From positions 1-30,781 of IMG/VR virus record IMGVR_UViG_3300017750_000056: a DNA stretch of 30,781 nucleotides; one strand, given 5' to 3'. Shown piece by piece: positions 1 to 23,571 of this stretch. Positions within the stretch are counted from its first letter, which is position 1; every line of letters begins with the position of its first letter. The DNA is from a virus. Made by a program: the position numbers and the translations under genes. The notes beneath the pieces were generated by a model, which saw only the letters and a list, made by a program, of their open reading frames with translations, made no database searches and was not told the DNA's origin.

Positions 1-354
1 AAAGACGGTAACATACTAAGCATGGGTTACAATGGCATGCCTTCGGGTATGGAAAACAATTGTAAAACAACTAATGGCGGTACTAAAGCTGAAGTAATTC
101 ACGCTGAAGCGAACGCCATATGTAAACTAGCCAAGAGCACAGGGTGTTCAGAGGGTGCAACACTATATTGTACCCTCGCTCCTTGTGTTGAATGTGCAAA
201 ACTAATACTGCAAAGTGGTATTAGTCGGGTAGTATTTTCTGATGCATACAAAGACGATTCAGGAACACTACTACTAATTCAGAACATTAAAGTAGATAGG
301 ACAAAGTATGCAAGCACAACTCCAATACCTAAAGGAGAAGATAAGAAAAGCTAA
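1..354 (+). CDS. dCMP/deoxycytidylate deaminase, 3' part (start outside the window)
   Basis: Zinc-dependent cytidine/deoxycytidylate deaminase family; in phages this enzyme usually converts dCMP to dUMP and feeds dTMP synthesis. The reading frame is open to position 1 (seven more codons before the first ATG at 22), and the residues there, ending SMGYNGMPSGMENNC, are interior family sequence, so the true start lies upstream. Visible hallmarks are the HAEANAI motif (zinc-binding His and catalytic Glu) and the PCVECAK zinc-binding Cys pair. The C-terminus overlaps the next gene by 47 bases, which suggests co-transcription with the RNA polymerase. The substrate is inferred from family context and was not tested. 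Confidence 0.88.
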   Translation, partial: KDGNILSMGYNGMPSGMENNCKTTNGGTKAEVIHAEANAICKLAKSTGCSEGATLYCTLAPCVECAKLILQSGISRVVFSDAYKDDSGTLLLIQNIKVDRTKYASTTPIPKGEDKKS

Positions 355-2500
355 AGCTCACATTGCTTGTAGTCTGCTAAAGTTAACATCTGACGCAGAC
401 CTCGAGGCTTACCTCGTGTTTACTATGGATACTATCCAGCAACACTTTACTCGTAATAGTATACGTGGAAACAAATCATACCAAGGTGAAGCCAACCTTA
501 CTCACTTGAGTACAACAATTGGCGAATATATTCTCGATGATATTAAATATTATCACGAGGATCAAGCACCTTGGGAATGGTTTAAGCTACGTGTAATGAT
601 GGGTGATCTGTTGCTGGAAGCATTCTATCAAACACACCAGATTAATATTGGTAAAAATAAAGATGATTCTTTTGTACCAATGGAAAGTCTGGATCGAGGA
701 TTAAAGAGAAGTCGCACACACTATATTGTTGTACCGGAACTATGGAATCTAATAGTGCCAGAAGGTTCTAAAGATTTGCTAGCCGGTACAACCTTTAGTA
801 AGCCTGAAGATATTTCACAACTCATGCAACCCACAGACAGACCTATAATAAAAGGCTGGACTGAACAAAGGAGTGGTGAGTTTAACCAGTATCTTTACCG
901 CGACTTTATTAAAAGCATGAATGTTCTGCAGCAAACTCCGTGGAAAATCAATACACAAATTCGAGATATTCTTTTACGTAATCGTGAAAAGATTATCGAT
1001 CAACATAAACACCTTCCCAAAAAGTATAAGTCTAAGATCATTGAGTTCGATCTGACAATGGCACGGTCCGCACTCATCGAAGACAATACTTTTTATCAGT
1101 ACACCGAAGCTGACTATCGTGGTCGGCTATACTACACAACCCCCTTCCTAAACTTTCAAAGTAATGATATTGCTCGAGGACAAATGCTATTTGCTAACGG
1201 TAAACTCATGACTGAGGAAGGCCTACGCAGATTAAAGATACACATTGCTAGCTGCTACAATCAAACTTATCATCGTGATGAGCTACCTGATTGGGTTACG
1301 GCAGACTACTTATCGTATCTTGAAGATGAAGGTTTGGATGATATATCAGTTGACAAGATGACACTGGTAGATCGTGAGGCATGGACTGATAACAATATAG
1401 ATATGCTAATGTCAATCGCAGCTGAGGAACGGATTGAACTAGCAGCTGAAAAACCTATTACACTTCTCGCTTGTGTATTAGAAATATACAATGCCATTAA
1501 TAGCGGGGGTGAATACTATACTTACTTACCGATCCCGGTAGATGGTAGCAACAACGGGTGGCAACACCTATGTGCTATGTCTAAAGACAAAGAAGCTGGT
1601 GAACTTGTAGGAGTAGTTCCGCAGGAGATCCAGAAAGACTTCTATGTACAGTGTGCTAAGAATCTTATTACAAGATTACCGGAGTGGTTCGACGAGCGCC
1701 AGATGCCCATGAAACATATACGTAAGGGTATCGCTAAGCGTGGATCAATGACCCGAGCATACAGTGCAGGTGCATCTAAGATAGCTGAGAACATGTATCT
1801 TGATTGTCACGTTGAAGGTTACTTAGATAGGTATAATATTACTGAAGAAGATTGTCGACTGCTTGCTAAGCATCTTGTTAAGTCAATTGATGAGGTATGC
1901 GCAGGTCCACTACAGACTATGAAGTTTTTACAAAAGATAGCTGAAGCTGAGATTGCTTCGGACTACGCTAAAGAAACCCAGCAGAAATCTATTAGATGGA
2001 CTACGCCTTCCGGCTTTCCAGTTATCTATGAAGCATTTATAGATAACGAGTTTAAAGAGAAAGCAACTATCAGTTGTACTGAGCGAAAGGTTAAGCCAGT
2101 AATTCGTAAGGAAGACGGTACTGAAGAAGAAACAGATACCATTCGTATCCAACATGTAGGTAAAGAAGCTACAGACAAACCAAAGATACGTTCCTTTATG
2201 TCAGGCATCTCACCAAACTTTGTACACTCAATGGATGCTGCACACATGGCTGCAGTAATTAAAGAATGGGGCAGTGACTTCGGTGCTGTTCATGATTCAT
2301 TTAGTGTACATGCGTGTGATGTTGACGACCTACTTCAAATCATTAAGGATAAGTTTGTAAGCATGTATGATTACCCTAATTACTTTGATGTAATAGAGCA
2401 CATGCTGATTACTAATCCAGATAACTTTAACTATGAACAACCAGGACTTGGAAGCCTGGAGATAAGAGAGGTGCAAGACAGTGACTACTTCTTCGCGTAA
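308..2500 (+). CDS. T7-type single-subunit DNA-directed RNA polymerase (730 aa)
   Basis: Phage-encoded RNA polymerase expected to transcribe middle or late phage genes. Visible motifs are DYRGR (residues 269-273), motif A with Asp412 in VDGSNNGWQH, motif B with Lys477 and Tyr485 in KRGSMTRAYS, the SPNFVHSMDAAH segment, and motif C with Asp663 in VHDSFS. The C-terminus ends DSDYFFA, matching the ESDFAFA 'foot' of T7 RNAP, so the 3' end is complete. T7 RNAP is 883 aa with DxxGR near 421-425, so the N-terminal domain here is about 150 residues shorter. That total size is close to the combined N4 RNAPII subunits. The Gly after the motif B Tyr in T7 is Ser here. Start: ATG 308 has a modest AGGA upstream; GTG 416 (GAGG 8 nt upstream) and ATG 425 are in-frame alternatives. 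Confidence 0.95.
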   Translation: MQAQLQYLKEKIRKAKAHIACSLLKLTSDADLEAYLVFTMDTIQQHFTRNSIRGNKSYQGEANLTHLSTTIGEYILDDIKYYHEDQAPWEWFKLRVMMGDLLLEAFYQTHQINIGKNKDDSFVPMESLDRGLKRSRTHYIVVPELWNLIVPEGSKDLLAGTTFSKPEDISQLMQPTDRPIIKGWTEQRSGEFNQYLYRDFIKSMNVLQQTPWKINTQIRDILLRNREKIIDQHKHLPKKYKSKIIEFDLTMARSALIEDNTFYQYTEADYRGRLYYTTPFLNFQSNDIARGQMLFANGKLMTEEGLRRLKIHIASCYNQTYHRDELPDWVTADYLSYLEDEGLDDISVDKMTLVDREAWTDNNIDMLMSIAAEERIELAAEKPITLLACVLEIYNAINSGGEYYTYLPIPVDGSNNGWQHLCAMSKDKEAGELVGVVPQEIQKDFYVQCAKNLITRLPEWFDERQMPMKHIRKGIAKRGSMTRAYSAGASKIAENMYLDCHVEGYLDRYNITEEDCRLLAKHLVKSIDEVCAGPLQTMKFLQKIAEAEIASDYAKETQQKSIRWTTPSGFPVIYEAFIDNEFKEKATISCTERKVKPVIRKEDGTEEETDTIRIQHVGKEATDKPKIRSFMSGISPNFVHSMDAAHMAAVIKEWGSDFGAVHDSFSVHACDVDDLLQIIKDKFVSMYDYPNYFDVIEHMLITNPDNFNYEQPGLGSLEIREVQDSDYFFA

Positions 2501-3248: not shown

Positions 3249-6200
3249 TTAAAGATCCATCTGTGTAAGGTTCTTATCAACTTGCGACAATACTTCTCGT
3301 TTATCTTTAGCAGTTACTGCGACTGCTTGTTTGTTTCTTTGACTGAGGTTCATAGTATTCTTAAGTGTCATAAGAATTCTTTGGATCTGACGCTTAGTGA
3401 ATACTGTATTGTCTACATCAATTCCCATATCAGCTAAGTCGTTTTCAAATTGAACAGCAGCTTCTTCACCTGCTATTTGAAGCTGGGCGGTGTACTGATC
3501 AATAGAAGTTCCCGGTGTCTTTGCCTTATGCTGAAGTGTCTTAGCTAAGAACTTACTTAAAACAAGATCACCTTGCTTAGTACGAGACAGTAGATATGCA
3601 AGTCCACGGTATGGTCCATCTTCATCCAGGTTTACTTTTTCATTAGGATCTGGAAGAGGAGCTGCAATTTTTTTCATGGTGTCATCAAACCATGTACCAG
3701 CTACTTCCTCTACATAACTGTGATCACGAATACCTTCGAACCAATTCTTGTTTGCTTCACGACGTACAGCAGCAAAGCTACCAAGGTCGGTAACAAACGC
3801 ATCAAAGATAGGTAGGACAAATGGTTTACCCTTAGCCGCTTGGCTGATACGTTCCCAAGACTGGCCCGATCCTGTGCGAGCAATCATATTTCCATCATAA
3901 GACTGCACTGAAACCGGAATAATACGACCCAGTGTCCATCCGCCTGGCCCAAGTTCTGGGCGTTCGGCTGATCCTTCCGCACGCTCTTTATAGAATTGAA
4001 CAGCAACCTTCTTACGACCACCTTCTTGATCCTTAAATTCAAAGGAGCTAGAGGTTGTAAGCTCAGGCGCCATTTGTTTACCAGCAGCATAACTACGGAA
4101 ACCCATAGCATTATCGAAGTAAAGTACCTCGTTACTGGCCATTGACATAACTGCATTAGCTTTAAGCAGCCTGCCCATAGCAACAACCTTTGGGTCCATG
4201 ATTTCAAAGATAGAATCAACCAGCATTGTATGGAGAAAGTCTACAGTATCATCAAGACTAATCTCACCAGCTACTGCTTCTTTCTTAATAGCATCTGCGG
4301 ATGGTCCAGAGTAAACTGTAGTTTCCACATGCTGCTTAAGCGATGGAATTTCCTGGCCATAACCCATAGTCATAGGCGACTTCTTAAGGAAGTTAGCTCT
4401 ATCTTTAATTGCAAGGTTAAGAATATTTGTAAAGTACGAAATCTGGTTAGCCGGATAAAGTGTACCCGCATAAGTACCAACAGTCGCCTGCATGTTTTCG
4501 CCCATAGCTTTTCGTGAATCAAGCCAATCTGTATTAGAAAAGTCTTGAGTTACGATAAGTCCTGTACGCTTGGCCATAGAAGATACACCAAGAATAGCAG
4601 CATTAGTAGCAGGTCCATGTGTTTTACCATCCATCTCAGCAGTAATTGTTGTTGAGAACTGCGCACCATCTTTACGAGCAGCATCATAGTTAGCCACTTC
4701 AATAAACAGGTTTGCAAACATTGGACCTTCGTCACCGTGCTTAGCTAGCTCGGCTTTCAGGTTTGCATCTAGTGGATCATTACTAAAGCGCTTTACAATA
4801 TCTTGTTTGATACCACGAACAGCATCAGGTGATTGAGCTTTACGAATAGCTTCAACTGCCTGCTTAGCACCATTAATATCAAAGTTATCACGTGCCTGCT
4901 TAAGTTGATTACCCCAAGCTACAAACTGATTCCACTGATCATTACCTATTGTCCGGTCAAATGTAGCCAGGCGTTCCTGAGTTGATAACTCCGTACCCTT
5001 AAATACTTTACCGTCTTTTTCAGCGGACAAAAGCAAGCCAGAAATAATCTCTTTCCAAGCAGCTTCAACTTCACCACCAGTATTTGGCTTCCACTTATAA
5101 ACATTTCCACCTCCTACAATAAACCTTAGGAACTTATGTGCCGCTGGATTATAAAGTGTTTGCTGCACATGAGTACGACCAGTGAGTGCTTGCATTGAAA
5201 ACGTAAGATGGTTAACCTCGTTTGAGTATTCAGCCGCAGCTCCAGCAATATTCAAAAACTTTTCACGGTTTGCCTGCAAAATCTTTTGTGGATTATAAGC
5301 TTGAGCTTCTCTAATGGCCGCCTCACGCGCATCAGGAAACGGAATACGCATAGCAGCATCCATCATGCGTTGCTTTTCACCTTCAAGTTCATTCAACTTA
5401 TCTAATCCGATACCATACATTCCAGCATAGGTTTGGTTATCTGGGTTGTTAGTATTGATTAGACCCAGCACTCCAAACATAAACGCTAGACGCTCACGCC
5501 CCGCATCATTTACATATGGAACACTGTGATAGTTCACCATTGATTCTTGAACTAGCGACCAATCTTTAAGGTCACCAACTTTTGTAGTAACCGGACGAAC
5601 CCTCATGCGGCCTTCAAACACAGGCTGAGCAGTCTCTGATACACCCTTAAGCGGTTTAACTTCAGGCTGCGCCATCAAACCTTTAAAGTCCTGGTTCAAT
5701 CTATCCAATTCAATAGCACCTTCTGGTGTCATCTGATAATAGACTTGACCACCTGAATCCACTTCACGCGTATCTCGATATACCATATCAGGATTCGCAC
5801 GAGCGTAAGTCTCTTTTGCAAGATCACCCAGGAAAATAAATGTTTCGGGTGAAATCTCGTCAATGTTTTGTAAATAATCATCAGTAGGTCTACCTTCGTT
5901 TACTGCACGCTGGCGCTTGTAAGCCATAAAGATTTCACGGCCAAGCCCCTGGTTACCTGTAGCTTTAGTAAATCGCTGACCACCCTGTTGTCCAGGTACA
6001 TAATCACCTGGCATACCGGTTTCTTCATCAATCTTACCAGCCATTTCAGTGGCAGCATCCATCTGTTGGTGCATCCATGCCTCAGTTGTAAGCGACATAA
6101 CCCGCCCAAAGTCTGGATCAATTGACATACGACCGGTTTCTTCATCGTATTTACCGGCATCAAGCATTCGCGGATCATACAGTAAAGACTGAACGCCCAC

Positions 6201-6737
6201 ATTAATAGTAGAGCCACGCAATGCAGGAGCTACTGGTACCTTGATATTACCCTCGGGATCTGTCGCAGAGAACGCAGCTTCAGGGAAGCCAGCTTGTAAT
6301 GTCTCTAGCTTCTTAGCGGTCATCTTAGAACCACCAACTTCCTCTGCCATAACAGCGGTAGTATTATCAGCACGCACCAGTGCGCTTTCCAAGGGCTGCG
6401 TATTTTGTACAGCACTTGGTGCAAGTGTAGTTCGCTTTAGTTTTTCTGTGTAAGCAGGCACTCTTTCCCGCTCGCGCTGCTCAGCTACCAAATCTGGGGC
6501 CGGAGTAGGTGCCTCAGGCATATCGATAGCGGGCATCTGGGCTTCCGTGGCAACCTCTGTAATCGGTTGAGTAAGAATTGCAGGAGCAGCAACTTCCGGA
6601 GCTGTGGTGGGCTCCGGTGTTACTGCTTGTTCTGGTACCGGAGTAGCCAAAATTTCTGCAAAATCGCTAACTTTACCCTCAGTCGGCATAGTGGGCTGAG
6701 CCCCAGGTATTACACTAGGTCCTGAAAATTTAGCCAT
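3249..6737 (-). CDS. Putative virion-packaged single-subunit RNA polymerase (N4 vRNAP-like, 1162 aa)
   Basis: Seen directly: motif B KKSPMTMGYG (Lys785, Tyr793, Gly794) lines up position for position with T7 KRSVMTLAYG (Lys631, Tyr639). Motif A is EMDGKTHGPATNAA with Asp703. Motif C is PIFDAFVTD with Asp979, where T7 has HDSF. A GR motif at 520-521 (LTGRTHVQQTLYNP) matches T7 RGRVYAVSMFNP. The order is canonical and the B-to-C spacing (194 residues) is near that of T7 (181). Residues 1-95 are Pro/Ala/Glu/Thr-rich and probably disordered; no N-terminal domain like that of T7 is evident. The length resembles the N4 mini-vRNAP core (about 1100 aa). It is the last gene of the internal-virion-protein block, with GGAGGATAG before its ATG. 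Family membership is fairly firm. Packaging and ejection with the DNA are inferred from position and from N4. Confidence 0.82.
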   Translation of the reverse strand: MAKFSGPSVIPGAQPTMPTEGKVSDFAEILATPVPEQAVTPEPTTAPEVAAPAILTQPITEVATEAQMPAIDMPEAPTPAPDLVAEQRERERVPAYTEKLKRTTLAPSAVQNTQPLESALVRADNTTAVMAEEVGGSKMTAKKLETLQAGFPEAAFSATDPEGNIKVPVAPALRGSTINVGVQSLLYDPRMLDAGKYDEETGRMSIDPDFGRVMSLTTEAWMHQQMDAATEMAGKIDEETGMPGDYVPGQQGGQRFTKATGNQGLGREIFMAYKRQRAVNEGRPTDDYLQNIDEISPETFIFLGDLAKETYARANPDMVYRDTREVDSGGQVYYQMTPEGAIELDRLNQDFKGLMAQPEVKPLKGVSETAQPVFEGRMRVRPVTTKVGDLKDWSLVQESMVNYHSVPYVNDAGRERLAFMFGVLGLINTNNPDNQTYAGMYGIGLDKLNELEGEKQRMMDAAMRIPFPDAREAAIREAQAYNPQKILQANREKFLNIAGAAAEYSNEVNHLTFSMQALTGRTHVQQTLYNPAAHKFLRFIVGGGNVYKWKPNTGGEVEAAWKEIISGLLLSAEKDGKVFKGTELSTQERLATFDRTIGNDQWNQFVAWGNQLKQARDNFDINGAKQAVEAIRKAQSPDAVRGIKQDIVKRFSNDPLDANLKAELAKHGDEGPMFANLFIEVANYDAARKDGAQFSTTITAEMDGKTHGPATNAAILGVSSMAKRTGLIVTQDFSNTDWLDSRKAMGENMQATVGTYAGTLYPANQISYFTNILNLAIKDRANFLKKSPMTMGYGQEIPSLKQHVETTVYSGPSADAIKKEAVAGEISLDDTVDFLHTMLVDSIFEIMDPKVVAMGRLLKANAVMSMASNEVLYFDNAMGFRSYAAGKQMAPELTTSSSFEFKDQEGGRKKVAVQFYKERAEGSAERPELGPGGWTLGRIIPVSVQSYDGNMIARTGSGQSWERISQAAKGKPFVLPIFDAFVTDLGSFAAVRREANKNWFEGIRDHSYVEEVAGTWFDDTMKKIAAPLPDPNEKVNLDEDGPYRGLAYLLSRTKQGDLVLSKFLAKTLQHKAKTPGTSIDQYTAQLQIAGEEAAVQFENDLADMGIDVDNTVFTKRQIQRILMTLKNTMNLSQRNKQAVAVTAKDKREVLSQVDKNLTQMDL

Positions 6738-6748: not shown

Positions 6749-9700
6749 CTATTCGAATGCGCTAGCGATTGTTCGGTTAAGTTGATTGAATGGTCCCACA
6801 AATGGGGCCGTCTTAAGTATATCATATACACCTTTCTCCGGTCTACCTTCAATGATTTTACCTGCACCACCGTAGACACGAGCCACGTTTGAAAGTGCAG
6901 CAGCCTCACCAGAGACCGTATTAAAGAACCACTCAGCTGCATTATCAGATGATGATTCATAAATAGGATAGATAAAGTTAAGAACGCGCTCACCAGTACC
7001 TAGCAATCCAGACGAACCAACAGCACGCTGAAGCTTTTCCATATCATCAAGATAAGGAGATGGCTCACCATACTTAAGTAGGTCTTTCAAATACTGAGAT
7101 ACAAATCCAAGCAAAAGCATTGTTGTCATAACAGCAAACACATTATACTTCATAGCTGGAGTACCACGCGCAACATACTCGCCCCACATCTTCGGTATTT
7201 GATTAGCAGTAAATGTAGAGATGAAACCCTGGAACTGCGTAAACAAAGCAAGATGCTGGTTCTGATAGAACAATGGACGGTTAGCAACACCTGGAAGTGC
7301 AATAGCCATATTAACAAAGTTAAACTCTGCCTCAAGCATCATAGCATCGAAGGCTGCAGTTTGTTCTGGTGACCAAGGCCCTGGCTGATATACCATAGCA
7401 AGCATATCATCTACATTAATACCGAGATTACGGAGATGCTCTTCAGATTCCTGCACTGCGTTAGTCTTCGGCTCACCGCTAACTCTTTGATCCTGAATCG
7501 TACTAAGGTGATTCATAATAAAGTCGTTAGCAATCGATGCCCGAATGCTACGCGTGTAGTCAGTCCACTGTTGCAATCCAATAATCTTAAAGTATTTATC
7601 TAGCAGATGACGTGATGCATGTGTATTTTCTGTAGCACCAGTAGTCTGTGCTGCACCAACATCCCAATCAAAGAAGCCAAGGCGTTTAATGTTTTCTTGC
7701 CTAGACTCTTTACCTACCTGTCGGTTTGTAGAGTTATAGCGAGGATCTGTTATAGTTCCCCATAATGCTTGCGCCATTTCTTTTGAAGCGTTACCAATAG
7801 TCTTGAAGACCATATCTTTTGGTAGTCCTACGGTTGTAATAGCTAGCTCAACAAACGATGAGATAGTAGCAAGAGGTAGACCAGCAATTGTAGTCCAGAT
7901 ACCAAGGTTCTTTTGAATGTTAGCAAGAGTACGGTTTTGCATACGCTTATAGTTACCCGACTCTGCATCTAGGTAGTCTTGCATTTGTGCTGCAACTTTA
8001 TTTACTTCTGCTGCAGGTACACCTTCTTCTAGCGCCTGATTTAACAGCTCATTTACTTTTGCATTATTATCACCAAGAAACTCTTGATATGTAATATAAC
8101 GAGATGCCGACTTAGCAGCATTAGATATATTAGTAAACGCATCTGACTCCATGAATTGTTTAAACTCAGGGTTTTCAGATAGATTAAGAGTACGACTGCG
8201 GTGTGCAGCAGGTATAAACCTACCTTGACCTACATTAAATGTGTCTTGTTCTCCCACCAATGTTTCTTGATTAAGAATATTATCAGTAAGTGTTTCAGCA
8301 TCAGTACGACTATAATTATAATTGTCCATTAGCTTTTGTATAAAACCATTACGATCTTTTTCAATAGCTACTTTATTAAAAGACTTATACTTAAATAAGT
8401 AGTTCTTTATATAGCCAAGAGGTGCAGGCTTATTATTCTTTTGAGCAGCAGCTACCTGATCATTATATAGTTTATCACTAAGCTTCATAGTTTGTTGATA
8501 GTATTGAGCGAGCCAGTTACGGTGCCGTCTAATATCTTCTGGAAGATTATCCCAGTCTATGCCTGCACTAGATTGATTACCTAGCCATGAACCAAACTTA
8601 TTAATAATGCTTGACAGCTCAGGCTGACTAATGGTTTTAAACCCAGCAGCTTGAGCAAACTCAGCTGGTGAGCTAACCATATTTCGGTATTCAGTTAGCA
8701 AATGTTTCTTACGGTTTTCAAAGTTTGAACCTGAAAATGTGCGCTGTAGATTACCACCAAAAGTATCAGCTAATATTCGCATAGCTCTTGAGCGATCTTG
8801 CAAACTTTCGTTAAAGATAAAACGTGTAGCGCCTCGCCATAAGCTAGGCACAGCCTGCCAAGTATCTTTTACTCTATCAAATACTGACCGCTCTAAATCA
8901 CGGCGGTTAGCTGCGTCAACCTTTTCTTGGAAGCTTGCACCCTGATTTCCCCGTGCCGTTACAGCTGTGCCTGCATCATCATTCAACTCCTGAATAGATT
9001 TAACTCTACCGAATTGCCGAACCTCTTCTTCAGCGCGTTGACCACGCTTAGATAAGCGCTTAGCTTCAGCAGGTGCTTGACGCACGGCAACATCGGCCCA
9101 GGCGCCGGCATCATATGCAATACCAGGAATAGAGAAGCCCGCACCTAAAGTACCACCAGCAATAGTAGCATTTAGTAGTCGGCTTTCAAGTTCAACTGCA
9201 TCAAACTCTTTATCACTGCCAAGTGTAGCAGCCATATAACCAGTTAGTTCTTGACCGGCTTCTGTTACAGCTTCGCCTGCCATACCTTTACTGGATGATG
9301 CAAGAAAGCTACGTAGTACATTACGCGATTTAAGTTGGCGCTTAGCAACTTCAGATGCTGCGCCAGCAAGGCTAGCCACTTCAAGTCGTGTAGCATTTGC
9401 TAGCATGTTCTTAGCAACAGTATCAGTAACACCATCACGTGCTACGATTGCAGCAACAGCGGCATCTCTGGTTTCTTTCTTAAGAATGCTTGCACCCTTC
9501 ATAATACCAAACAAACCGAGTCTATCAAGAGCGGCTTGCGTAACACCAGCAGCAATAGCTAGTCCAGCATTACGGTCTTCACCTTCCATCTCATTCCAGG
9601 TTTGTCCTGTATACATAGCGGCGGGTGACAGCATTGACACACCACCGGTAACCGGAGCAAGTACCGTACCAGCAATTGTGTTTGCCATATATGGTAATGA

Positions 9701-10666
9701 CACCGCAGCATTGTTACCGAGGTATTGAAAGAATTCACCAACACTGTCGATATCCCATTCATTACCTGTAACATTACCATCTTTGTCTACAATAGGCTTT
9801 AGTGCACTTAGTTTTAGCTCAGGCTTAGATGCCAGAAAAGCACGCTGACGTGCTACTCCGGCTTCACCTAATTCTTCTGCCCAGTTCCAGCCAGTGGTTT
9901 CACCAACCATTTCTGCAACACCGTACATACTTTCAATAACACCAGTCAAACCTACATCAAAGCTTTCGCTTAGTGGATTAACCGCTTTATTTTCTAGCGT
10001 ACGATCTAGGCTACGTACCTGTACACCAGCATCAATAAACTTATTAGCCTCAGCCATTCGGCGAGCATACATTGCTGCAGTTTCACCCGGCTGCTGAGGT
10101 GCATTTAATCTTGCTAGTGCTCGTTCGTTTAGTGCAGTCTGCTTGAACTCTTGCTCATACCGCATTTCATCGGTAGTAGCTTGCTCAATAGCTTGACCTG
10201 CTTTTTCCCAGTCATTAAGAGGTTGATCAAGTTTACTAGCACGCTCAGCCATTCCCAGCTTAGCTGTAATAACTTCGTTGTTTGTACTGTACGCACCAAC
10301 CTCATTAATACCGTGCCTAGTTAGTTGTTCTGTAAAGTCACGACCAACTTTGTCTTTAATCCGTACCATCTGACGAGTCCCAGTGGCATCCATCATAGGA
10401 GTGCCATCTGGGTTCGTAAGATACTGTACATTATTAAAGCCAAACTTATTAGCCAAGGCCATGATTTCTTCAGTAGCTGCCATACCACCGGCGGTTCCAG
10501 GGTCAAGTCCTGTAGCCGTTACGTGTGCAAGCTCAGCTGCTTCTAAGCCTTGGATACGGAGTAGGTTACCCTCATCATTCCTTAGTGTATCCGCGTCAGC
10601 AAAGGTGTGTCCTCCACTACCTGCTAGGTCGGTACTTACTTGGAACAATGCGTCAAAGTCACCCAT
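6749..10666 (-). CDS. Large internal/ejection protein with N-terminal SNase-like domain and gp16-like C-terminus (1305 aa)
   Basis: Probable internal virion protein ejected into the host. Residues about 20-130 resemble the staphylococcal nuclease fold: DADT (24-27) for DGDT, RIQGLEAAE (37-45) for RLLLVDTPE, and KVGRDF (106-111) for KYGRGL. These place Arg37, Glu45 and Arg109 at the catalytic positions Arg35, Glu43 and Arg87 of SNase. The middle is long and mainly helical, with Gly/Ala-rich hydrophobic stretches (for example AGTVLAPVTGGVSMLSPAA). Near the C-terminus come FQGFISTFTANQIPKMW and a hydrophobic segment at about 1176-1199, recalling the C-terminal part of T7 gp16-like internal proteins. 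The stop codon is fused with the next gene's Shine-Dalgarno (TAGGAGG). Its own GGAGA lies upstream of ATG 10666. Structural role likely; nuclease activity inferred. Confidence 0.8.
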   Translation of the reverse strand: MGDFDALFQVSTDLAGSGGHTFADADTLRNDEGNLLRIQGLEAAELAHVTATGLDPGTAGGMAATEEIMALANKFGFNNVQYLTNPDGTPMMDATGTRQMVRIKDKVGRDFTEQLTRHGINEVGAYSTNNEVITAKLGMAERASKLDQPLNDWEKAGQAIEQATTDEMRYEQEFKQTALNERALARLNAPQQPGETAAMYARRMAEANKFIDAGVQVRSLDRTLENKAVNPLSESFDVGLTGVIESMYGVAEMVGETTGWNWAEELGEAGVARQRAFLASKPELKLSALKPIVDKDGNVTGNEWDIDSVGEFFQYLGNNAAVSLPYMANTIAGTVLAPVTGGVSMLSPAAMYTGQTWNEMEGEDRNAGLAIAAGVTQAALDRLGLFGIMKGASILKKETRDAAVAAIVARDGVTDTVAKNMLANATRLEVASLAGAASEVAKRQLKSRNVLRSFLASSSKGMAGEAVTEAGQELTGYMAATLGSDKEFDAVELESRLLNATIAGGTLGAGFSIPGIAYDAGAWADVAVRQAPAEAKRLSKRGQRAEEEVRQFGRVKSIQELNDDAGTAVTARGNQGASFQEKVDAANRRDLERSVFDRVKDTWQAVPSLWRGATRFIFNESLQDRSRAMRILADTFGGNLQRTFSGSNFENRKKHLLTEYRNMVSSPAEFAQAAGFKTISQPELSSIINKFGSWLGNQSSAGIDWDNLPEDIRRHRNWLAQYYQQTMKLSDKLYNDQVAAAQKNNKPAPLGYIKNYLFKYKSFNKVAIEKDRNGFIQKLMDNYNYSRTDAETLTDNILNQETLVGEQDTFNVGQGRFIPAAHRSRTLNLSENPEFKQFMESDAFTNISNAAKSASRYITYQEFLGDNNAKVNELLNQALEEGVPAAEVNKVAAQMQDYLDAESGNYKRMQNRTLANIQKNLGIWTTIAGLPLATISSFVELAITTVGLPKDMVFKTIGNASKEMAQALWGTITDPRYNSTNRQVGKESRQENIKRLGFFDWDVGAAQTTGATENTHASRHLLDKYFKIIGLQQWTDYTRSIRASIANDFIMNHLSTIQDQRVSGEPKTNAVQESEEHLRNLGINVDDMLAMVYQPGPWSPEQTAAFDAMMLEAEFNFVNMAIALPGVANRPLFYQNQHLALFTQFQGFISTFTANQIPKMWGEYVARGTPAMKYNVFAVMTTMLLLGFVSQYLKDLLKYGEPSPYLDDMEKLQRAVGSSGLLGTGERVLNFIYPIYESSSDNAAEWFFNTVSGEAAALSNVARVYGGAGKIIEGRPEKGVYDILKTAPFVGPFNQLNRTIASAFE

Positions 10667-10675: not shown

Positions 10676-13600
10676 CTATTCAGTTGGTAAGTTTAGTTGC
10701 TCTTTAGCATACGCATAAAAGGCTGTCTCGCCAGGTAGCGCACGCTTCTGATACTGCTGTACAATGTCAGGGGTTTCAGATACCTTTTTATTCCATATCT
10801 CAGCCGCCTTAGTCCAGAACATATTAACAGCATCACGGTTTGCACCGTCGCTAATCTTACCTGTTCCACCAGCCCGCTTCAAGAATTGCAGGCTAAGCTC
10901 CTCAACTTTTACAGCATCCATTGGTACTTCTGCACCATCTTTTGTTGTAGTCGTAAAGAGATTACCAACACCGGTATCTTGGCGTAGCTTTAGCTGATTT
11001 AGATATGGCAACAATGATTCAGGCTTAACTTCATTTTCACCGCCAGCTTGCTGAACTGCCATACGATATGCTTGTTCAACATACGTATTCATTGATGCAA
11101 CATCAAGGCCATTTTTAGCAGCCCATTCTGCAGCTTCCATTGCAGCATTCGTTGGTGTAATGTTAGTCTTTTGGGTACGAGCCCGACCTGCTTTTGAATC
11201 ACCAGGAACTACATCACCAATTGAGGTTGATAGTTCTTTGATTGAATCTCTAAGCAGCGGTACCTCAACACGAATACGATCGTTGAATTCGTCAGTACCC
11301 TTATGCCTTGAAGCTTCCTGAGTCCATGAAGCAGGGATGGCTGTCTTACCACCGTCTGCAGACCAGATATGCCCATCACCAACCTTAAACTTCTCGGCTT
11401 GAATGCGCTTACCACTTGGACTATACCACATTTCTTTTGTACCGGTCGGGTTAATAGCTGGTCCAAGCTTCATAAGTACACTAGCATCCTTAGTCTTCTT
11501 ATATTCTTGAATAGACTTAGGTGTATACTTACCATCATTGATTAGCTTTTTAACTTGTGCGCTATGCTCAGCAGCCTTAGCATCTACTCGTGTAAGGTAT
11601 TGCTTTGCTGCCCAGTTAAGCGAACCACCGTGTGAGCCGCCCATAAGCCGTGAACCTGCATACAAAATAGCCATACGCTTTAGCTCACCCTTATCAAACA
11701 AGTCACCAAAGATGCCTTGTAAGAATGATTCGGCTTGCTCAGTTTTTTCTTGACCCTCAGCACCTGCTTTAACAACAGCCTTTGAAGCATCCGCCGTGGT
11801 TGTACCATCAGCAGATCCATCATTGATACTTTCAATATCTTTAGTGATTGCTGTAAGCACTTCACTTTTCTTAGTAGCGTTTTCAGATGTCGTAGTTCCG
11901 TCGCCTTGCTCTCCAATATCGGTATCAGTGTCAATATTCTGACGCTGCTTCCAAGTATCAAAGTCTGGAAAGTCAGTAACTCCAGATGCTTCAGCAATAC
12001 GCTTAGCCTCTTCATAGTCAGCGGTCAAGGTTTTACGTGCAGCTGTTGCTTCTTCTAATCGTTTTGCTTCAGCGGCAGCTGCTTCATCAGCTTCTACCTT
12101 AGTAACCTGAGTCGTTTGACCCCTGTTTTGTGCAATAGCAGTAGCTGTATCAGAAGATACTTGCCCTGTTTCTGCTACTTCTTTTGTAGCTTTTTCTTGC
12201 AAGGTTACGGCATCAGCAGCTAATTGATCAACCGTCTTTTCATACGGCTTTACAATTTTACTCGGGTCAGCATCTGCTGTTTCAAGTAGCCCGGCTTGTT
12301 GCTGTGTAAAAGTATCTTGCACACCAGCGGGCGCCGGGTGACCATAAGAGTTTAATAGCCTACCGTATTTATCAACAGTATAAACGATATTAGAACTAGG
12401 ATCAAGATAAGTTGTTCCCTCTGCGGGAAGCTGAGACTTTTGCTCCGGCTTAGGAGGTGCTGCTGTATCAGGAACACGATTACCTTTACCAGTATCTAAA
12501 AACTCACCTGATCCGCGGGAGCCGCTAGGTAAATTGCTAGTTGGCATTGGCACAGCATCAGCAGTACCCTCACCTGTAAGAGGAGACTCTTGATTATTAA
12601 GATTCGCGGCAACCAAACCTGTTGCAGGATCTTTTGCCAAAGAGCCATCTGCTTTAATCCGATACCACTTTCCACCTTCTTTTTGATAGTTATCTGTTTT
12701 ACCAAACTTATTAATACTGCGTACCTCGGGGGTAACAACAGGGGCTGGTACATCAGGTACTTTAGGTATTGGAGGAGTAGAGGCTGTAAGCATAGCTGCT
12801 TCATTTGCAGCAGCATCCTCAGCAATAGCTGAATCCCTACGCATCTTTTGCATCATCTGAATTTCTTCAGCATGACGAGCGGCATCATAGTTAGTTCCGC
12901 CTTCTTCAAGAACTTCATCGCCAACATACATACCAGTATTCGCGGTTGCTTGTTGTGCAAGTTTCTTTAGTGCATCAAACTGCGCAGCATAGTTATCATC
13001 TTCAACTACGCCACCAGGCGCTTTATATTGTGCCTGTGCAGCAGCTAGCATATCCGCAATGGTACTAGTAACAGGCATTTCTTGGCCAGTCATTGCTGTC
13101 ATTACAGGAGTGCGACTAGTCTCAGGGACTGCAGGCTTAGGTATGGGCATTGATTGAGAAGCCGGTACATCATCAGCCGTAGCTGCTTGTGCTTCAGTTG
13201 TCCCAAACATTCCAAGAATACTCGCAAGCATTGTAGGCTCTTCATCTGCTTTATAATTCATAGCATAATCTACACGCCTATCAAGATGCGCTTTATCAGG
13301 ATTAGCTTTTTCATATCCTTCTAAAAAGATTTTAGCTGCATCAGCTGGTGACTTAGCTGCATTCATTGCAGTACGCACATCACCAAATGCTTCAGAGTTA
13401 TTCATTTCAGCAAGCATAAAGTCTAGCTGTACTTCAGGATCTCGCCAACTTTTTTCCTGCTTAGCAGCAAAGTCTACAAGATTAAGTGGGTCCGTATCAA
13501 AGCGACCGCCCTTTTCCCATTGAGCAAGTCCTCTACCTTTACCGGTTTTACCGCTATCTAGTTTTTGTTTTGCATCAGGATCAAGCTTTGATTCAGCGTA

Positions 13601-14005
13601 AAAGTTACCCATAATTCCACGAGCAGCTGTATCAGTAAAGCCACGGTCCTTAAGCATTTTATAAAGCTGGTCAGCTTCTAGCGCAGGAATGTCTGGCATC
13701 TTTGGTTTAGGTTTTGGCAAACTAACTGGTCCGCCATCAGCAGAGTACTCAGGAATAGTTCCACCCTGCGCAGCCTGCATAGCACGACCCTTATCATTCA
13801 TTGCTTCAATCTGCGGTTCAAACATACGCACAGCTTCTGCGTTCATTACAAACTCACCTGGCGTAAGCCAAGCTGGTACAGTATCAGTCCCTTTTGGTGA
13901 GCCAGGATGCTCTGGAATCATTGACATTTCCGGTACGGAGGTATCAAATTCAATAGAGAACATATTACCATAGCGGTCCTTTTGTTCAAACTTTTTGAGT
14001 TTCAT
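10676..14005 (-). CDS. Internal virion protein with phage tail-lysozyme domain (1109 aa)
   Basis: Large virion-associated protein probably involved in cell-wall penetration during DNA entry. Residues about 108-250 resemble the Phage_lysozyme2/tail lysozyme family: IMGNFYAESKLDPDA with Glu138 as the likely acid, then GRGLAQWEKGGRF and VQLDFMLAEM. Before it, residues 39-55 contain GTDTVPAWLTPGEFVMN, a segment that recurs in virion proteins of many marine phages. After residue 250 the protein is low in complexity, Ala/Glu/Thr/Pro-rich, with a coiled-coil-like part and a folded C-terminal third. Start: ATG 14005 is chosen because GGAGG lies 6 nt upstream; a GTG one codon earlier is possible. The ATG overlaps the upstream gene's stop (TGATG). 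It is followed by the 1305-aa ejection protein, which fits a gp15/gp16-like set. Confidence 0.8.
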   Translation of the reverse strand: MKLKKFEQKDRYGNMFSIEFDTSVPEMSMIPEHPGSPKGTDTVPAWLTPGEFVMNAEAVRMFEPQIEAMNDKGRAMQAAQGGTIPEYSADGGPVSLPKPKPKMPDIPALEADQLYKMLKDRGFTDTAARGIMGNFYAESKLDPDAKQKLDSGKTGKGRGLAQWEKGGRFDTDPLNLVDFAAKQEKSWRDPEVQLDFMLAEMNNSEAFGDVRTAMNAAKSPADAAKIFLEGYEKANPDKAHLDRRVDYAMNYKADEEPTMLASILGMFGTTEAQAATADDVPASQSMPIPKPAVPETSRTPVMTAMTGQEMPVTSTIADMLAAAQAQYKAPGGVVEDDNYAAQFDALKKLAQQATANTGMYVGDEVLEEGGTNYDAARHAEEIQMMQKMRRDSAIAEDAAANEAAMLTASTPPIPKVPDVPAPVVTPEVRSINKFGKTDNYQKEGGKWYRIKADGSLAKDPATGLVAANLNNQESPLTGEGTADAVPMPTSNLPSGSRGSGEFLDTGKGNRVPDTAAPPKPEQKSQLPAEGTTYLDPSSNIVYTVDKYGRLLNSYGHPAPAGVQDTFTQQQAGLLETADADPSKIVKPYEKTVDQLAADAVTLQEKATKEVAETGQVSSDTATAIAQNRGQTTQVTKVEADEAAAAEAKRLEEATAARKTLTADYEEAKRIAEASGVTDFPDFDTWKQRQNIDTDTDIGEQGDGTTTSENATKKSEVLTAITKDIESINDGSADGTTTADASKAVVKAGAEGQEKTEQAESFLQGIFGDLFDKGELKRMAILYAGSRLMGGSHGGSLNWAAKQYLTRVDAKAAEHSAQVKKLINDGKYTPKSIQEYKKTKDASVLMKLGPAINPTGTKEMWYSPSGKRIQAEKFKVGDGHIWSADGGKTAIPASWTQEASRHKGTDEFNDRIRVEVPLLRDSIKELSTSIGDVVPGDSKAGRARTQKTNITPTNAAMEAAEWAAKNGLDVASMNTYVEQAYRMAVQQAGGENEVKPESLLPYLNQLKLRQDTGVGNLFTTTTKDGAEVPMDAVKVEELSLQFLKRAGGTGKISDGANRDAVNMFWTKAAEIWNKKVSETPDIVQQYQKRALPGETAFYAYAKEQLNLPTE

Positions 14006-15420
14006 CACTTGCCTCCACTTGATTCGTTACCGGACGGTTCATCGTATTCATCTTCCATGCCGTAGATAGTTGTTCCTGCTTGTGAGCCTCTGCCTTCTGA
14101 AACTCCCGTAGAACTTGTTTGATATGAACCACCTTGCCCATCACTTACGGTAAAGCCTGACATGCTGCCCTGGCCGTCGTTTTCTCCGGCCCTTAAGGAT
14201 AATTCTTGATTAGCCCTAAGCTGCGTAGCCGGATTGTTACTAAGCAAACTAATATTTTCGCCAGGTCTTGTACTATCACTAATCGATACAACAGTGCCAG
14301 TAGGGGTTTCAATAGTTCCGGATTCATTACGAACCCCAAACTGTCCCCCTTCTAGCGCAACAATATCTCCAGTTTGCGTACCAAACTTACCGCTAATGTT
14401 ACTTGGTGCTGGTCTATCGCCAGTAAACCCTAGCTGTGTAGCAGTAATCGGTGTGCCCTCTACTCGATCAATGTCATCATCTGACAAACCAGTATAATCA
14501 CCCGCTGCTATTTGGGTATTCATATTAATAAGATCTGCAACCGTTCCCATTGGTGCGCCTTCACCGCGCATACGGGCGGCTCGTGCACCTGCAATGTTTA
14601 GGGTTGGATCAAGATCCATTTGTTTGTATACTGAGTTATCATAGCTACCTAATGCAGAACTAATAACGCCTTCTCCAGCGTCTCTTAGTTTACTGTAGCC
14701 ACCACCAATGGTGCTCATTGCAGCCGACGGACTAGCATAAGATGCAACAGCTCGACCTGTAATTGGATCATATGCGCGACCTTCGGGGCCAAACACATTA
14801 CCCTGTGCATCATAAGTGCCATAGCTACCATAAGTATACTCATCATTTATACCCATAGCGTTTGACAAAAAGCTACCGCCTGGAATTGCAGCAAGTGCTA
14901 ATCCTAGCGGGTTTTGTGTGCCTCGAGTATAACCTAGTCCCTGGGCTTGTGGAATTCTAGAGCTTGCATAATCAAATCCACCATTATCATCACCGCCTGC
15001 TTGTTGCATTGCTGCAACTACGGGGTCTGCACCAGACGGTGGGGGTGTAGTTGTTGGCGGAACACCCGGAGCAGCTGGTGGAGAACCCACTGGCGGATAT
15101 TCGCCAGGTGGTAAATCTCTAAACCCAACACCTTGCTGTTGCTGACCGTTAACTATTGCGCCTTGTTGTGCAAAGGGGTCTTGGTTAAATGCAAGAGTTT
15201 GTGTAGTTTGTACACCAGTTGTGGCTCCTACCGCGCCCGCAGTTTGTTGTTGACCCGCTTGGCCTGGTACACCAGCACCAACGGTTGCTACAGCAGGTGT
15301 AGTTGTACCTAGTGTTTGTGGACTAGCTGATGCAGTCGCAGGAGCAAACTGAGAAGGGCCGTAACGTGTGCCATACTTAGGTTGTAGGCTGTACGTTGAT
15401 TGATATGGAACTGTAGCCAT
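14005..15420 (-). CDS. Putative virion structural protein, 471 aa, low complexity
   Basis: Not recognised as a family. The N-terminal 150 residues are rich in Gln, Pro, Gly, Ala and Thr (for example PGQAGQQQTAGAVGAT and PPTTTPPPSGADP) and probably disordered. Later segments contain YGSYGTYDAQGNVFGPEGRA and a Gly/Ser-rich C-terminus. No enzyme motif or clear membrane segment. GGGGGTAT precedes the ATG, and the gene lies between internal-protein genes with a 2-base gap from the 140-aa gene and a 1-base overlap with the 1109-aa gene. A structural or internal virion role is inferred only from this context. Confidence 0.7.
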   Translation of the reverse strand: MATVPYQSTYSLQPKYGTRYGPSQFAPATASASPQTLGTTTPAVATVGAGVPGQAGQQQTAGAVGATTGVQTTQTLAFNQDPFAQQGAIVNGQQQQGVGFRDLPPGEYPPVGSPPAAPGVPPTTTPPPSGADPVVAAMQQAGGDDNGGFDYASSRIPQAQGLGYTRGTQNPLGLALAAIPGGSFLSNAMGINDEYTYGSYGTYDAQGNVFGPEGRAYDPITGRAVASYASPSAAMSTIGGGYSKLRDAGEGVISSALGSYDNSVYKQMDLDPTLNIAGARAARMRGEGAPMGTVADLINMNTQIAAGDYTGLSDDDIDRVEGTPITATQLGFTGDRPAPSNISGKFGTQTGDIVALEGGQFGVRNESGTIETPTGTVVSISDSTRPGENISLLSNNPATQLRANQELSLRAGENDGQGSMSGFTVSDGQGGSYQTSSTGVSEGRGSQAGTTIYGMEDEYDEPSGNESSGGK

Positions 15421-16878: not shown

Positions 16879-17042
16879 TATGCTTGCACCTTAGCTTGTA
16901 AATCTGCAAAGTTAGTTGACTCTTTAATGTCTTTAATTAACTTTAGGTTTTGTTGTTCAAGATCATTTAGTAGCTTAACCATTTCAAGCAAAGTAAAATC
17001 TAAAGCGGGTTCATCGCTGATTGGCGGGTTTTGAACTGCCAT
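16878..17042 (-). CDS. Small hypothetical protein, 54 aa
   Basis: Short ORF filling the gap between the 1418-aa tail gene and the GNAT gene, with TAATG one-base overlaps at both ends, strong evidence that it is translated. It reads MAVQNPPISDEPALDFTLL, followed by a predicted helix or coiled coil (LLNDLEQQNLKLIKDI) and ends ADLQAKVQA. It has no membrane segment and no cysteines. It is not recognised; small coiled-coil proteins at this position in T7-like phages are usually virion or assembly accessory proteins, but nothing here proves that. Confidence 0.75.
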   Translation of the reverse strand: MAVQNPPISDEPALDFTLLEMVKLLNDLEQQNLKLIKDIKESTNFADLQAKVQA

Positions 17043-20000
17043 TACTTAATACCCCCTTTCATAATACCTAATTGCATACCTGAAATATTCCAAGCACGTG
17101 TATTGTTACCAGTATAGCTGCTGCTTGTATCAGCTGCCGCATCATCAACTCGATAGTTTAAGAAGCGACCAGTAATACGTACGTCAGTTTTATATGAGCT
17201 AGCTACAATAAAATCATTTACAGTTAGCTTATTTGCTTTTGAACCCGATTGTGTATTGTCTTCAGGTGTTGTTAAATAAGCAAGCTCGCCTGGATTATTA
17301 GTTGATCTAGCCCTAAGCTGTAACGTAGCACGCTGCGGTTCACCACCAACAGTCGTGATAGTACCTCCATCAGCCCACAAAGCAATACTACTTAGCGTCT
17401 CAGTATCAAAGTTTGGTGTAATTGATAGCTGCTCTCTTTCGGCATATGATACATAAGGTGTACCACCAAAATCAAAACCTAGATCGGCTGACCTAATACG
17501 ATTAAACAATGTGCCAGATGTGTATCCACTTTCTGCAAAGATGGGAAACAATTTATTAGGGTTAGTTTGACTGCTTGACCAAGGTCTTACAATATCAAAC
17601 GTAGTACTAATAGATGTGCCTGTAGTGCTTTGAGTAGGATTAGTTGTTGCTACAGTATTACCTTCAGCCACAGCCACAAGGTTTGTGGTTGTTGGGGCAA
17701 CACTAGCTGCTACAACTTGTGTATCTGGACTAAACGCAGTTACATAGTTAGCTGTTGAACTAAACTGGCTAGGACTAATATCAATGGTTGTAGGTGCAGA
17801 TGTACTATCTGGTGTTACAATCAGTGCGTTATTAGTACTAATTTCAGCAAGTGCTGCAAGCAATGCGCTTTGCAATGTTGAAACTGTGCCGTTAGGTTTA
17901 GCCAACTCAGTAGCGTTTTGTGTTTTATCAGGATCATAGTAAGCATTGAGATAGTCAGTAGCATTAGTGTGACTAGTGTCACCATACGTACTATCATTCG
18001 CCGCTGGTGTAAAGTTGGGGTCAAGAAGTCTACCTGGCCCTTCACCATAATGCCTGTCAAAGATTACACTACTACCACTTGTTGTATTAATAGTAATCGT
18101 AACTCGAGTCATTTTAGCATAAATAGGGTTAACACCTTCTGTAACTACAACATTACCACCTGTTGAATTAGTAATCAAAGGAGATACTAGTGTGCCGGTT
18201 CTTGAATCACCTGGCGTTACTGTATAAGTAAACGACCCCGTTACATTTTTTCGATCGGCACTAGTAAACGTAAGCACTTCATTAGAACGACTTACCGTAA
18301 AATAGGTCGTATCTGTCCATGCAGCTTCAATAGCTGTAGCAATTTCTGTAGCTGTTATTTCTTCTACATTAGTAGGTGAACTTCCAGAGTCGGGATCGAA
18401 TGCTGTTGTACTATCAAAGTTTATTGTTACAGGATTTCCTTCAGGTGGCGTAATAGTAATACGATCTGTTGTACTATGCGCTGCTCGACCTGCTCTTGTT
18501 TGAGCACCTGTAAATGTGCTGTTACTAAATCCAGCAGGTAAGCTACCTGTGCTAGCAACTGTAACCGTAAAATTATTGTTTACAATTCCGACTGCTGCAG
18601 CTGTAGCTGTAACAAGGCCTGTACCTGTAGTTGTAGACCACCCGCTGTTAGCATTTATAAGCCCACTAACAGCTGTTACAACTGTAGCCCTAGTCTGAGT
18701 GCCACTAAGTGTTGTAGTGCTTGTAGAGGCGTCTGGAAACGTTACTGTGAGTACTGGTTGTGGAATACTATTGTTAACCCCTGTAGTAACTACACTTACT
18801 GAAGAAGTAAGGTTGCCACCAAAGGTTGTTTCACTATAACCCGTACCTTGATAATCAGTTGCAAAAGCAATTGTTAAAGCACTATGATTTCCACCATTAA
18901 CTGAAGTAAACCTTACATTGTTCCCATTAGCCGCAACGCTATAGATAGCAGAAGAACTACCACTAAAGACGCTAAGAGCAGATAGTTTAGACACAATATC
19001 GTCTCTAATCGCCGTTTGACCTGTGAGATTCTTTGTAAGAGTAATTGTCTCGTTGATTGCACCTTGTACTCCGCTTACGGCTGGTGCCGTGATAGTCATT
19101 GAAATAGCAGGACTAAGTGCCGCTGTAATACCGTATACACCTACGCCTGTAGTTGTGGAGTTAGGTGAAATATTAGTTGTTGAACCACTACCAGACACTG
19201 CAAAAGTAGATGTACTAAATGCACGAGGTCCGGGAACGTCAGAAGTAAGTGTAAGAACATTAGTAGAAGCTGTTGCAGTAAAGTCTGCTAAAGCATTGTT
19301 TGCATTAATATAATCACGAATAGCTGCAACAAACTGCGTCATAGTAATTGTAGCACCATCGGCATAATCAGTACCTAAAATAGCGCTTGCTGGGAAACTA
19401 ACATTACCAATACTACTATCACCATTAATAATCGCACTAGCTCCACCATCAAGGTGTGTAGTTTTATTGCGATCATAAGTAAAAGTAGTTGATGAAGGAT
19501 ATGTTAATGTACTTACTGCGTTAACAGTGTTAGGTCCAGTATCACCGGTAACTGTAAGGTCTACAACCTCAAGCACATCAGTAGTAAAGCTACTAAATGT
19601 ACCAACAGCAACTGTCTTAATAGCCTTAGTACCTACGGTTTTCTTAGGTGTTTTACCATTGATAGTAACTGCTTGAGTCTCTCGTTTACCGCGGTTAGTA
19701 TAGCCTGCATTGCCGCTATTACCAGTAGCTGCAATAGTCGCAGTTGGAATGCCGCCTCCTTTAATAGGTCCCACATCACCTGCAGCAACCGCATCAAGGT
19801 CTCTAATAGTCCACGTATTGTCTCTATAATTCCAGATAAGAGCTTCATCACATTCTCCCCCAGTTGAGTTAAGTGTTGGATAGCAGATCCACACTTCTTC
19901 TTCCTGGTGGTTTTGTAATGTAAATAGCTGCCGTTCATGAATTGGATTTAAGTTATTGTAAAAGTATTGGGTTACTCTTTTACCAGACAAAGATTGAATA

Positions 20001-23124: not shown

Positions 23125-23571
23125 TCAAATTGCTACATTTCGCATTCTTTTTACAAGACGCTCAGCACGGTTAGTTACTTGTCTATACCAGCGACTATTA
23201 ACCATTTGGTTTGCAGCCTCTTGCCAATTGCTTATTGCCACAGCTGCAAGGAAGTTTTTAAACTTACTTAGCCGTGGTCGGCCCATATTAAACATCATAT
23301 TAGCAATAATTAGTTGGACTTCTTCGGGCAATACTTCGAAACTGGGGAGGAGCTTCTTGCATTCTTCGAGCACCACGTCGACGTCGCGAGCAAAGCATTC
23401 GTTGACTCTATCTTCTGAGACAGCTGTTCCGACCGGCTGTCCATGCTCCGGATCAGACTCCAAAACAAGATGACCAATACCAAAAGTAGGCAGGCCAAGA
23501 TGATCCAAATAGATTTCATACTTAACGCCTTCGTCAACCTTAAGCTCCTCTCTAAGCTGATCTATATTCAT
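23125..23571 (-). CDS. T4-type lysozyme/endolysin (GH24), 148 aa
   Basis: Muramidase that hydrolyses peptidoglycan at lysis. It aligns with T4 lysozyme: MNIDQLREELKVDEG (T4 MNIFEMLRIDEG), LDHLGLPTFGIGHL (T4 KDTEGYYTIGIGHL), MMFNMGRPRLSKFKN, and NSRWYRQVTNRAERLV (T4 KSRWYNQTPNRAKRV). The catalytic triad is visible as Glu14, Asp23 and Thr29. There is no signal peptide or N-terminal anchor, so it should need a holin to reach the periplasm; the upstream gene encodes one. The ATG overlaps the holin stop (ATGA). The length is slightly below that of T4 lysozyme (164 aa). Confidence 0.95.
   Translation of the reverse strand: MNIDQLREELKVDEGVKYEIYLDHLGLPTFGIGHLVLESDPEHGQPVGTAVSEDRVNECFARDVDVVLEECKKLLPSFEVLPEEVQLIIANMMFNMGRPRLSKFKNFLAAVAISNWQEAANQMVNSRWYRQVTNRAERLVKRMRNVAI

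What the first reader, a model, noticed from the sequence alone, without database searches (positions are those of the whole stretch)
10225..10666. Staphylococcal-nuclease-like domain fused to an ejection protein
The first ~130 residues of the 1305-aa protein contain DADT, RIQGLEAAE and KVGR at the spacing of SNase DGDT, RLLLVDTPE and KYGR. The three catalytic positions (Arg35, Glu43, Arg87) are occupied by Arg37, Glu45 and Arg109. An active nuclease carried in the virion and injected with the genome could attack host DNA or RNA or help in entry; alternatively the fold may only be a binding module.
Basis: partly seen in the sequence, partly recalled or inferred. Interest (0 to 1): 0.7.

Follow-up and report, generated by a model that had tools for sequence, protein, structure and literature searches.

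The report
Nuclease-like domain on injected phage protein
A marine short-tailed phage carries, at the front of a large protein predicted to be injected into its host, a very diverged copy of the staphylococcal-nuclease fold with its catalytic residues intact, which suggests that the phage delivers a nucleic-acid-cutting enzyme as it enters the cell.

Summary
Residues ~16-122 of the 1305-aa ORF (window 6749-10666, minus strand) are a diverged staphylococcal-nuclease (SNase) domain. The AlphaFold2 model has SNase strand/helix order. The 36 best PDB hits are all SNase. Profile comparison with true SNases beats all 500 column shuffles. In 21 relatives down to 23% identity, D24, D26, T27, R37, E45 and R98 are invariant, matching SNase D19, D21, T22, R35, E43 and R87. 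The R87 equivalent is Arg98 (DATGTRQ). The D40 calcium ligand is E here (S/T/D/E in relatives).

Residues 236-1305 are homologous to the LUZ24/tf 'particle protein', which lacks residues 1-235; so the nuclease domain is an added N-terminal module, the place where T7 gp16 carries its transglycosylase. Neighbouring ejection genes encode a lysozyme-domain protein and a divergent single-subunit RNA polymerase resembling N4 virion RNAP.

Most likely: an active, Ca2+-dependent nuclease ejected with the genome and working in the envelope. Activity, virion presence and substrate are unproven. An SNase domain on a phage hub protein is published, so the kind is known; this architecture appears new.

The parts
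10301..10621 (-). SNase-like domain, residues ~16-122 of the 1305-aa protein
   Evidence: AF2 model order b1 21-24, b2 27-29, b3 35-38, a1 61-74, b4 79-82, b5 99-104, a2 111-117; Foldseek top 36 all SNase; VIA-align SNase Z 6.5 over 16-122
10589..10597 (-). D24-A25-D26: equivalents of SNase D19/D21 (Ca2+ region)
   Evidence: D24 and D26 invariant in 21 relatives
10556..10558 (-). Arg37 = SNase R35
   Evidence: invariant, aligned by hhalign
10541..10543 (-). Glu42 = SNase D40 position (Ca2+ ligand), replaced; E/S/T/D in relatives
10532..10534 (-). Glu45 = SNase E43
   Evidence: invariant
10373..10375 (-). Arg98 = SNase R87 (corrected third catalytic residue)
   Evidence: invariant; aligned to R of DKYGR
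10340..10342 (-).
   Evidence: T/N/D/E/Q in relatives
9962..10300 (-). linker, residues 123-235, absent from LUZ24-type homologues
   Evidence: tf gp51 aligns only from residue 236
6749..9961 (-). ejection-protein core, residues 236-1305, homologous to LUZ24/tf 'phage particle protein'
   Evidence: phrog_6958 E 2.6e-29; hhalign to tf gp51 E 2.8e-16, 236-1216
10676..14008 (-). upstream ejection-cluster gene, 1110 aa, with Phage_lysozyme2 domain at 112-252
   Evidence: PF18013 E 2.7e-30
3249..6737 (-). downstream ejection-cluster gene, 1162 aa, divergent single-subunit RNA polymerase (N4 vRNAP/T7-like)
   Evidence: phrog_414 E 2.1e-7; invariant D703, K785, Y793, D979; Foldseek T7 RNAP E 2.9e-5, VIA best N4 vRNAP Z 9.6

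Best explanation
The N-terminal ~107 residues are a homologous, highly diverged SNase domain with the catalytic Arg-Glu-Arg set and the D19/D21 acidic pair intact. It was added to the front of a LUZ24-type ejection protein. The protein would be packaged with the genome and expelled on infection together with the lysozyme-domain protein and the RNA-polymerase-like protein. By analogy with the N-terminal transglycosylase of T7 gp16, which sits in the 'wings' of the periplasmic tunnel, the domain would end up in the periplasm or at the envelope, outside the channel that shields the phage's own DNA. Periplasmic Ca2+ (sea water is about 10 mM; the cytosol is sub-micromolar) would let it hydrolyse phosphodiester bonds there. 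The targets would be nucleic acid at the entry site: DNA of competing phages, extracellular DNA or leaked host nucleic acid. Shown here: fold, homology, conserved residues, fusion, gene context, purifying selection. Inferred: virion presence, ejection, periplasmic location, Ca2+ dependence, activity and target.
For: Fold: AF2 model and PDB search, top 36 all SNase, next Tudor-SN. Homology to true SNases: hhalign P 4.9e-5, above all 500 shuffles. CRP-7 gp34 N-terminus: its only NCBIfam hit is thermonuclease NucI, E 0.01 over 37-149; the domain of its close relative L010 matches, besides CRP-7 itself, only an annotated SNase-family phage protein by tblastn (30%, E 0.2). Catalytic set invariant in 21 sequences down to 23% identity. 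dN/dS of the domain well below 1 (about 0.05-0.32) in seven pairs. Core homologous to LUZ24/tf 'particle proteins', which lack residues 1-235. Synteny lysozyme - SNase - RNAP kept in relatives. T7 gp16 N-terminal enzyme placement and swapping of that domain between ejection proteins: PMC8954989.
Against: No Pfam SNase match for any member. AF2 confidence is moderate (mean pLDDT 64, loop 43-60 below 50). Foldseek E-values are only 3.5e-3 at best, with low TM-scores (0.30-0.41). The D40 ligand is not conserved as Asp, so Ca2+ affinity may be low. A nuclease packaged with the phage's own DNA in Ca2+-rich sea water would need restraint before ejection. No mass spectrometry or ejection data exist for this phage.
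Confidence: 0.5

Rival explanations
1. A catalytically dead SNase/OB-fold module that binds nucleic acid or a partner ejection protein, for example gripping the leading genome end, much as SNase-like folds serve as binding modules in Tudor-SN and extended Tudor domains.
For: The D40 position varies (E/S/T/D); extended Tudor domains, which contain catalytically inactive SNase-like folds, score as high as SNase in VIA-align (Z 6.6); safe to package with DNA.
Against: The exact SNase catalytic set is among only ten invariant columns, whereas non-catalytic SNase-fold domains typically lose it (general knowledge). All residues seen at the D40 position have an oxygen-bearing side chain.
Confidence: 0.23
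2. An active nuclease that reaches the host cytoplasm and attacks host DNA or RNA to start takeover.
For: A neighbouring ejection-cluster gene encodes an RNA polymerase that would have to work in the cytoplasm, so cluster products can plausibly cross the inner membrane.
Against: SNase needs Ca2+ near millimolar; cytosolic Ca2+ is sub-micromolar (general knowledge). It would also threaten incoming phage DNA and early transcripts.
Confidence: 0.13
3. An active nuclease acting on the phage's own DNA during packaging or ejection, for instance trimming, nicking or releasing the genome end.
For: A relative in the LUZ24 group (phage tf) has site-specific nicks in virion DNA (PMC3517423).
Against: tf's homologue lacks the SNase domain and tf nicks are sequence-specific, unlike SNase products.
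Confidence: 0.09
4. Not an SNase relative; the motif match is chance.
For: No Pfam hit to any member.
Against: Fold, profile, conservation and NCBIfam evidence all name SNase.
Confidence: 0.05

Closest known systems
Staphylococcal nuclease family (PF00565; thermonuclease)
   Same: Predicted fold order, DxDT, R...E and the R of xGR at homologous positions
   Different: No Pfam match; D40 replaced by Glu; an insertion of about 8 residues before Arg98 relative to the CRP-7 type; fused to a ~1200-aa ejection protein instead of a secreted or lipoprotein enzyme
SNase domain on the BtI1 prophage hub protein (PMC2147016)
   Same: SNase domain at the N-terminus of a phage virion protein, in the place of a cell-wall-degrading domain in its homologue
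   Different: Myovirus-type baseplate hub (gp27-like) of a Bacillus phage-like element; here a podovirus internal/ejection protein in marine phages
T7 gp16 (PMC8954989)
   Same: Large ejection protein with an enzymatic domain of ~150 residues at its N-terminus
   Different: T7 enzyme is a lytic transglycosylase; here the peptidoglycan enzyme is on the neighbouring protein and the N-terminal enzyme is nuclease-like
LUZ24 gp50 / tf gp51 'phage particle protein' (phrog_6958)
   Same: Core residues 236-1216 homologous (hhalign E 2.8e-16)
   Different: No N-terminal SNase domain; 1021 aa instead of 1305
Roseobacter phage CRP-7 gp34 (PMC6918029)
   Same: Full-length homologue with the same SNase domain (hhalign E 2.3e-32 over 21-1240)
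   Different: 22-25% identical; annotated hypothetical; keeps Asp at the D40 position
Schitoviridae (N4, DEV) ejection operon with virion RNAP (PMC12633501, PMC10925440)
   Same: A single-subunit RNAP encoded beside ejection proteins
   Different: N4 vRNAP is ~3500 aa and its partner ejection proteins are helical tubes; the word nuclease does not occur in those papers

Membership tests
SNase (PF00565) | OB barrel with helices in the order b1-b2-b3-a1-b4-b5-a2 | tested here: met
   AF2 element order; Foldseek top 36 SNase
SNase (PF00565) | catalytic R35, E43, R87 | tested here: met
   R37, E45, R98 invariant in 21 sequences, aligned
SNase (PF00565) | Ca2+ ligands D21 and D40 | tested here: inconclusive
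   D26 (=D21) invariant; D40 position is Glu here, E/S/T/D in relatives
SNase (PF00565) | score above the Pfam gathering cut-off | tested here: not met
   no PF00565 match for any of 15 members up to E 10; so it is filed as a diverged homologue, not as a member of the model as built
SNase (PF00565) | Ca2+-dependent hydrolysis of DNA and RNA | not testable with these tools
   needs an assay
LUZ24-type ejection (particle) protein, phrog_6958 | sequence homology of the core | tested here: met
   E 2.6e-29 at 842-1203; hhalign 236-1216
LUZ24-type ejection (particle) protein, phrog_6958 | present in the virion and ejected | not testable with these tools
   inferred from homologues annotated as particle/structural proteins
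T7 gp16-like ejection protein | N-terminal peptidoglycan transglycosylase | tested here: not met
   N-terminus is SNase-like; the lysozyme domain is on the upstream protein. Analogy of layout only

The most novel reading that the evidence does not exclude
A marine podovirus lineage ejects a three-enzyme set: a peptidoglycan hydrolase, a Ca2+-switched SNase nuclease on a gp16-type ejection protein, and an RNA polymerase. The nuclease is held inactive in the head and switched on in the periplasm, where it destroys other nucleic acid, for example that of competing phages, while the phage's own genome passes shielded in the channel.
Probability: 0.25. Interest if true: 0.82.

Novelty: new variant of a known kind. 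Interest (0 to 1): 0.6.

Why it matters
Ejection proteins of short-tailed phages are known to carry peptidoglycan hydrolases and, in N4-like phages, an RNA polymerase. No nuclease is named in the ejection-protein review or in the N4 and DEV papers searched. A conserved nuclease domain there would show that podoviruses deliver nucleic-acid-cutting activity at the first moment of infection, and raises the question how a phage packages a nuclease beside its own DNA. Cultured phage CRP-7 carries the same domain, so it can be tested.

Tried and rejected
Arg109 as the R87 equivalent: rejected by conservation and alignment. tblastn hits of the domain to Gordonia phage tape measure proteins were read out and show no SNase motifs; rejected. 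Hits to Aeromonas rIIA and a Moorella endolysin are weak and partial; ignored. PDB sequence search with the family profile gave only unrelated weak hits. A scan of genome contigs with the domain alignment confirmed no relative. One weak hit in BFVD, A7KUR9_2 (E 0.08), I guessed to be from Bacillus phage 0305phi8-36, but that record was not in the collection, so it stays unresolved; the search did lead to the BtI1 precedent. Direct hhalign of the RNAP-like protein to the window's own RNA polymerase gave nothing significant; structure search and motifs settled it instead. No literature was found that describes an SNase domain in an ejection protein; the library lacks most subscription papers, so this is not proof of absence.

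Full report
What is there. The window is a virus record and reads as a short-tailed marine phage: a T7-like RNA polymerase gene (308-2500, +) and, on the minus strand, a virion cluster. The 1305-aa ORF lies at 6749-10666. Its C-terminal part matches phrog_6958 'virion structural protein' (E 2.6e-29) and, in GenBank phages, the LUZ24-type 'particle proteins' of Pseudomonas and Vibrio phages and gp34 of Roseobacter phage CRP-7.

Is the N-terminus an SNase domain? (a) Relatives were collected from viral contigs and aligned (A5, 21 sequences, 23-97% identity to the window). Ten columns are invariant: D24, D26, T27, R37, E45, G61, A72, D87, R98, G108. Six of them are the SNase set D19, D21, T22, R35, E43, R87. 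(b) Profile-profile comparison of alignment A4 with 22 SNase sequences taken from Bacillota genomes gives P 4.9e-5 over residues 20-127. For residues 16-128 the score is 28.9, against a maximum of 24.2 and a mean of 12.0 in 500 column shuffles. (c) AlphaFold2 (mean pLDDT 64, most core blocks about 80-90) gives the SNase order of elements. The 36 best PDB matches are all SNase, followed by Tudor-SN, and VIA-align gives SNase Z 6.5 over 16-122. These scores are individually modest, but the ranking is exclusive. (d) The CRP-7 N-terminus finds one NCBIfam model only, thermonuclease NucI (E 0.01, far below its cut-off), and the domain of the CRP-7-type contig L010 finds one phage protein besides CRP-7, annotated as SNase family (E 0.2).

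Correction of the active site. In relatives such as L082 the text is 'DVHGRQLVRLTDEYGRDFTETL' and in CRP-7 'DPYGRQIGDLENSAGQRFSEKL'. The Arg in front of beta-5 (window Arg98, 'DATGTRQ') is the one that never changes, and Arg109 becomes T, N, D, E or Q. In the window family extra residues before Arg98 hide the usual spacing. The position of Ca2+ ligand D40 is Glu here and E/S/T/D elsewhere. Asp is kept in CRP-7 and in L036, which even reads 'GLDAPET'. True SNases in the comparison set also have Asn at this position (VNTPE), so change there is tolerated.

The fusion. Window-type and CRP-7-type proteins align over their whole length including the SNase domain (hhalign E 2.3e-32, 21-1240 to 43-1296). 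Phage tf gp51 aligns only from residue 236 (E 2.8e-16). So the SNase domain plus linker is an extra N-terminal module on a LUZ24-type ejection core. The domain evolves under purifying selection (dN/dS about 0.05-0.32 in seven pairs). The order lysozyme-domain protein, SNase protein, RNAP-like protein is kept in relatives.

The neighbours. The upstream 1110-aa protein has a Phage_lysozyme2 domain (E 2.7e-30). The downstream 1162-aa protein is a second, divergent single-subunit RNA polymerase: phrog_414 E 2.1e-7; motif A E-M-D703-G-K-T-H-G, motif B F-L-K785-K-S-P-M-T-M-G-Y793-G and motif C F-D979-A-F with D703, K785, Y793 and D979 invariant in ten relatives. Foldseek finds only T7 RNAP and mitochondrial RNAP with E below 1e-3, and VIA-align ranks N4 vRNAP first (Z 9.6, tied with mitochondrial RNAP). 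The model is of low overall confidence (pLDDT 58). Its place among ejection genes recalls the N4/DEV operon of two ejection proteins and a virion RNAP (PMC12633501, PMC10925440). That it is packaged is an inference.

How it may work. In T7, the N-terminal 156 residues of gp16 form the wings of the periplasmic tunnel and hold the transglycosylase, and such domains can move between ejection proteins (PMC8954989). By analogy the SNase domain would be ejected before the DNA and stay at the envelope, where Ca2+ is plentiful and the phage's own DNA is inside the tunnel. Its substrates would be nucleic acids outside the channel. The steps after the fold assignment are inference. A dead binding module is the main rival; invariance of the catalytic set argues against it but does not exclude it.

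Known or new. SNase domains on phage virion proteins have one published precedent found here, the hub protein of phage-like element BtI1, whose purpose the authors called not obvious (PMC2147016). The CRP-7 paper does not mention a nuclease for this gene (PMC6918029). I found no report of such a domain in a podoviral ejection protein, with the limit that the library is open-access only. I therefore rate it a new variant of a known kind.

Noticed in passing
3249-6737 (-): A second single-subunit RNA polymerase (N4 vRNAP/T7-like; D703, K785, Y793, D979 invariant) lies in the ejection gene cluster, in addition to the ordinary RNA polymerase at 308-2500 (+). A candidate virion RNA polymerase of only ~1160-1470 aa outside the Schitoviridae; CRP-7 gp33 has corresponding motifs.
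   Followed up: partly
L018 (IMGVR_UViG_3300006166_000223), ORF from 1440: The reading frame of a near relative stops 142 residues after its start Met, just after the SNase domain, while L082 with nearly the same sequence is open over 1461 aa; sequencing error or real truncation not resolved.
   Followed up: no
structure and family hits of the domain: A0A7S5RE72, a 150-aa viral protein without a name in the tables, matches the SNase-like model (E 2e-3), and phrog_18798 (124 aa, unknown function) matches by sequence (best E 1.3e-5): perhaps stand-alone versions of this diverged SNase.
   Followed up: no
21322-23070 (-) and 23125-23571 (-): Ribonucleotide reductase large subunit (phrog_84, E 2.6e-137) and a lysozyme-like protein (phrog_13211, E 9.2e-22) sit among the virion genes.
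   Followed up: no
17042-21298 (-): 1418-aa protein whose N-terminal 609 residues match a virion structural protein family (phrog_3287, E 2.6e-46), partly overlapping a tail-fibre match (phrog_14417, residues 363-501); the remainder is unassigned.
   Followed up: no
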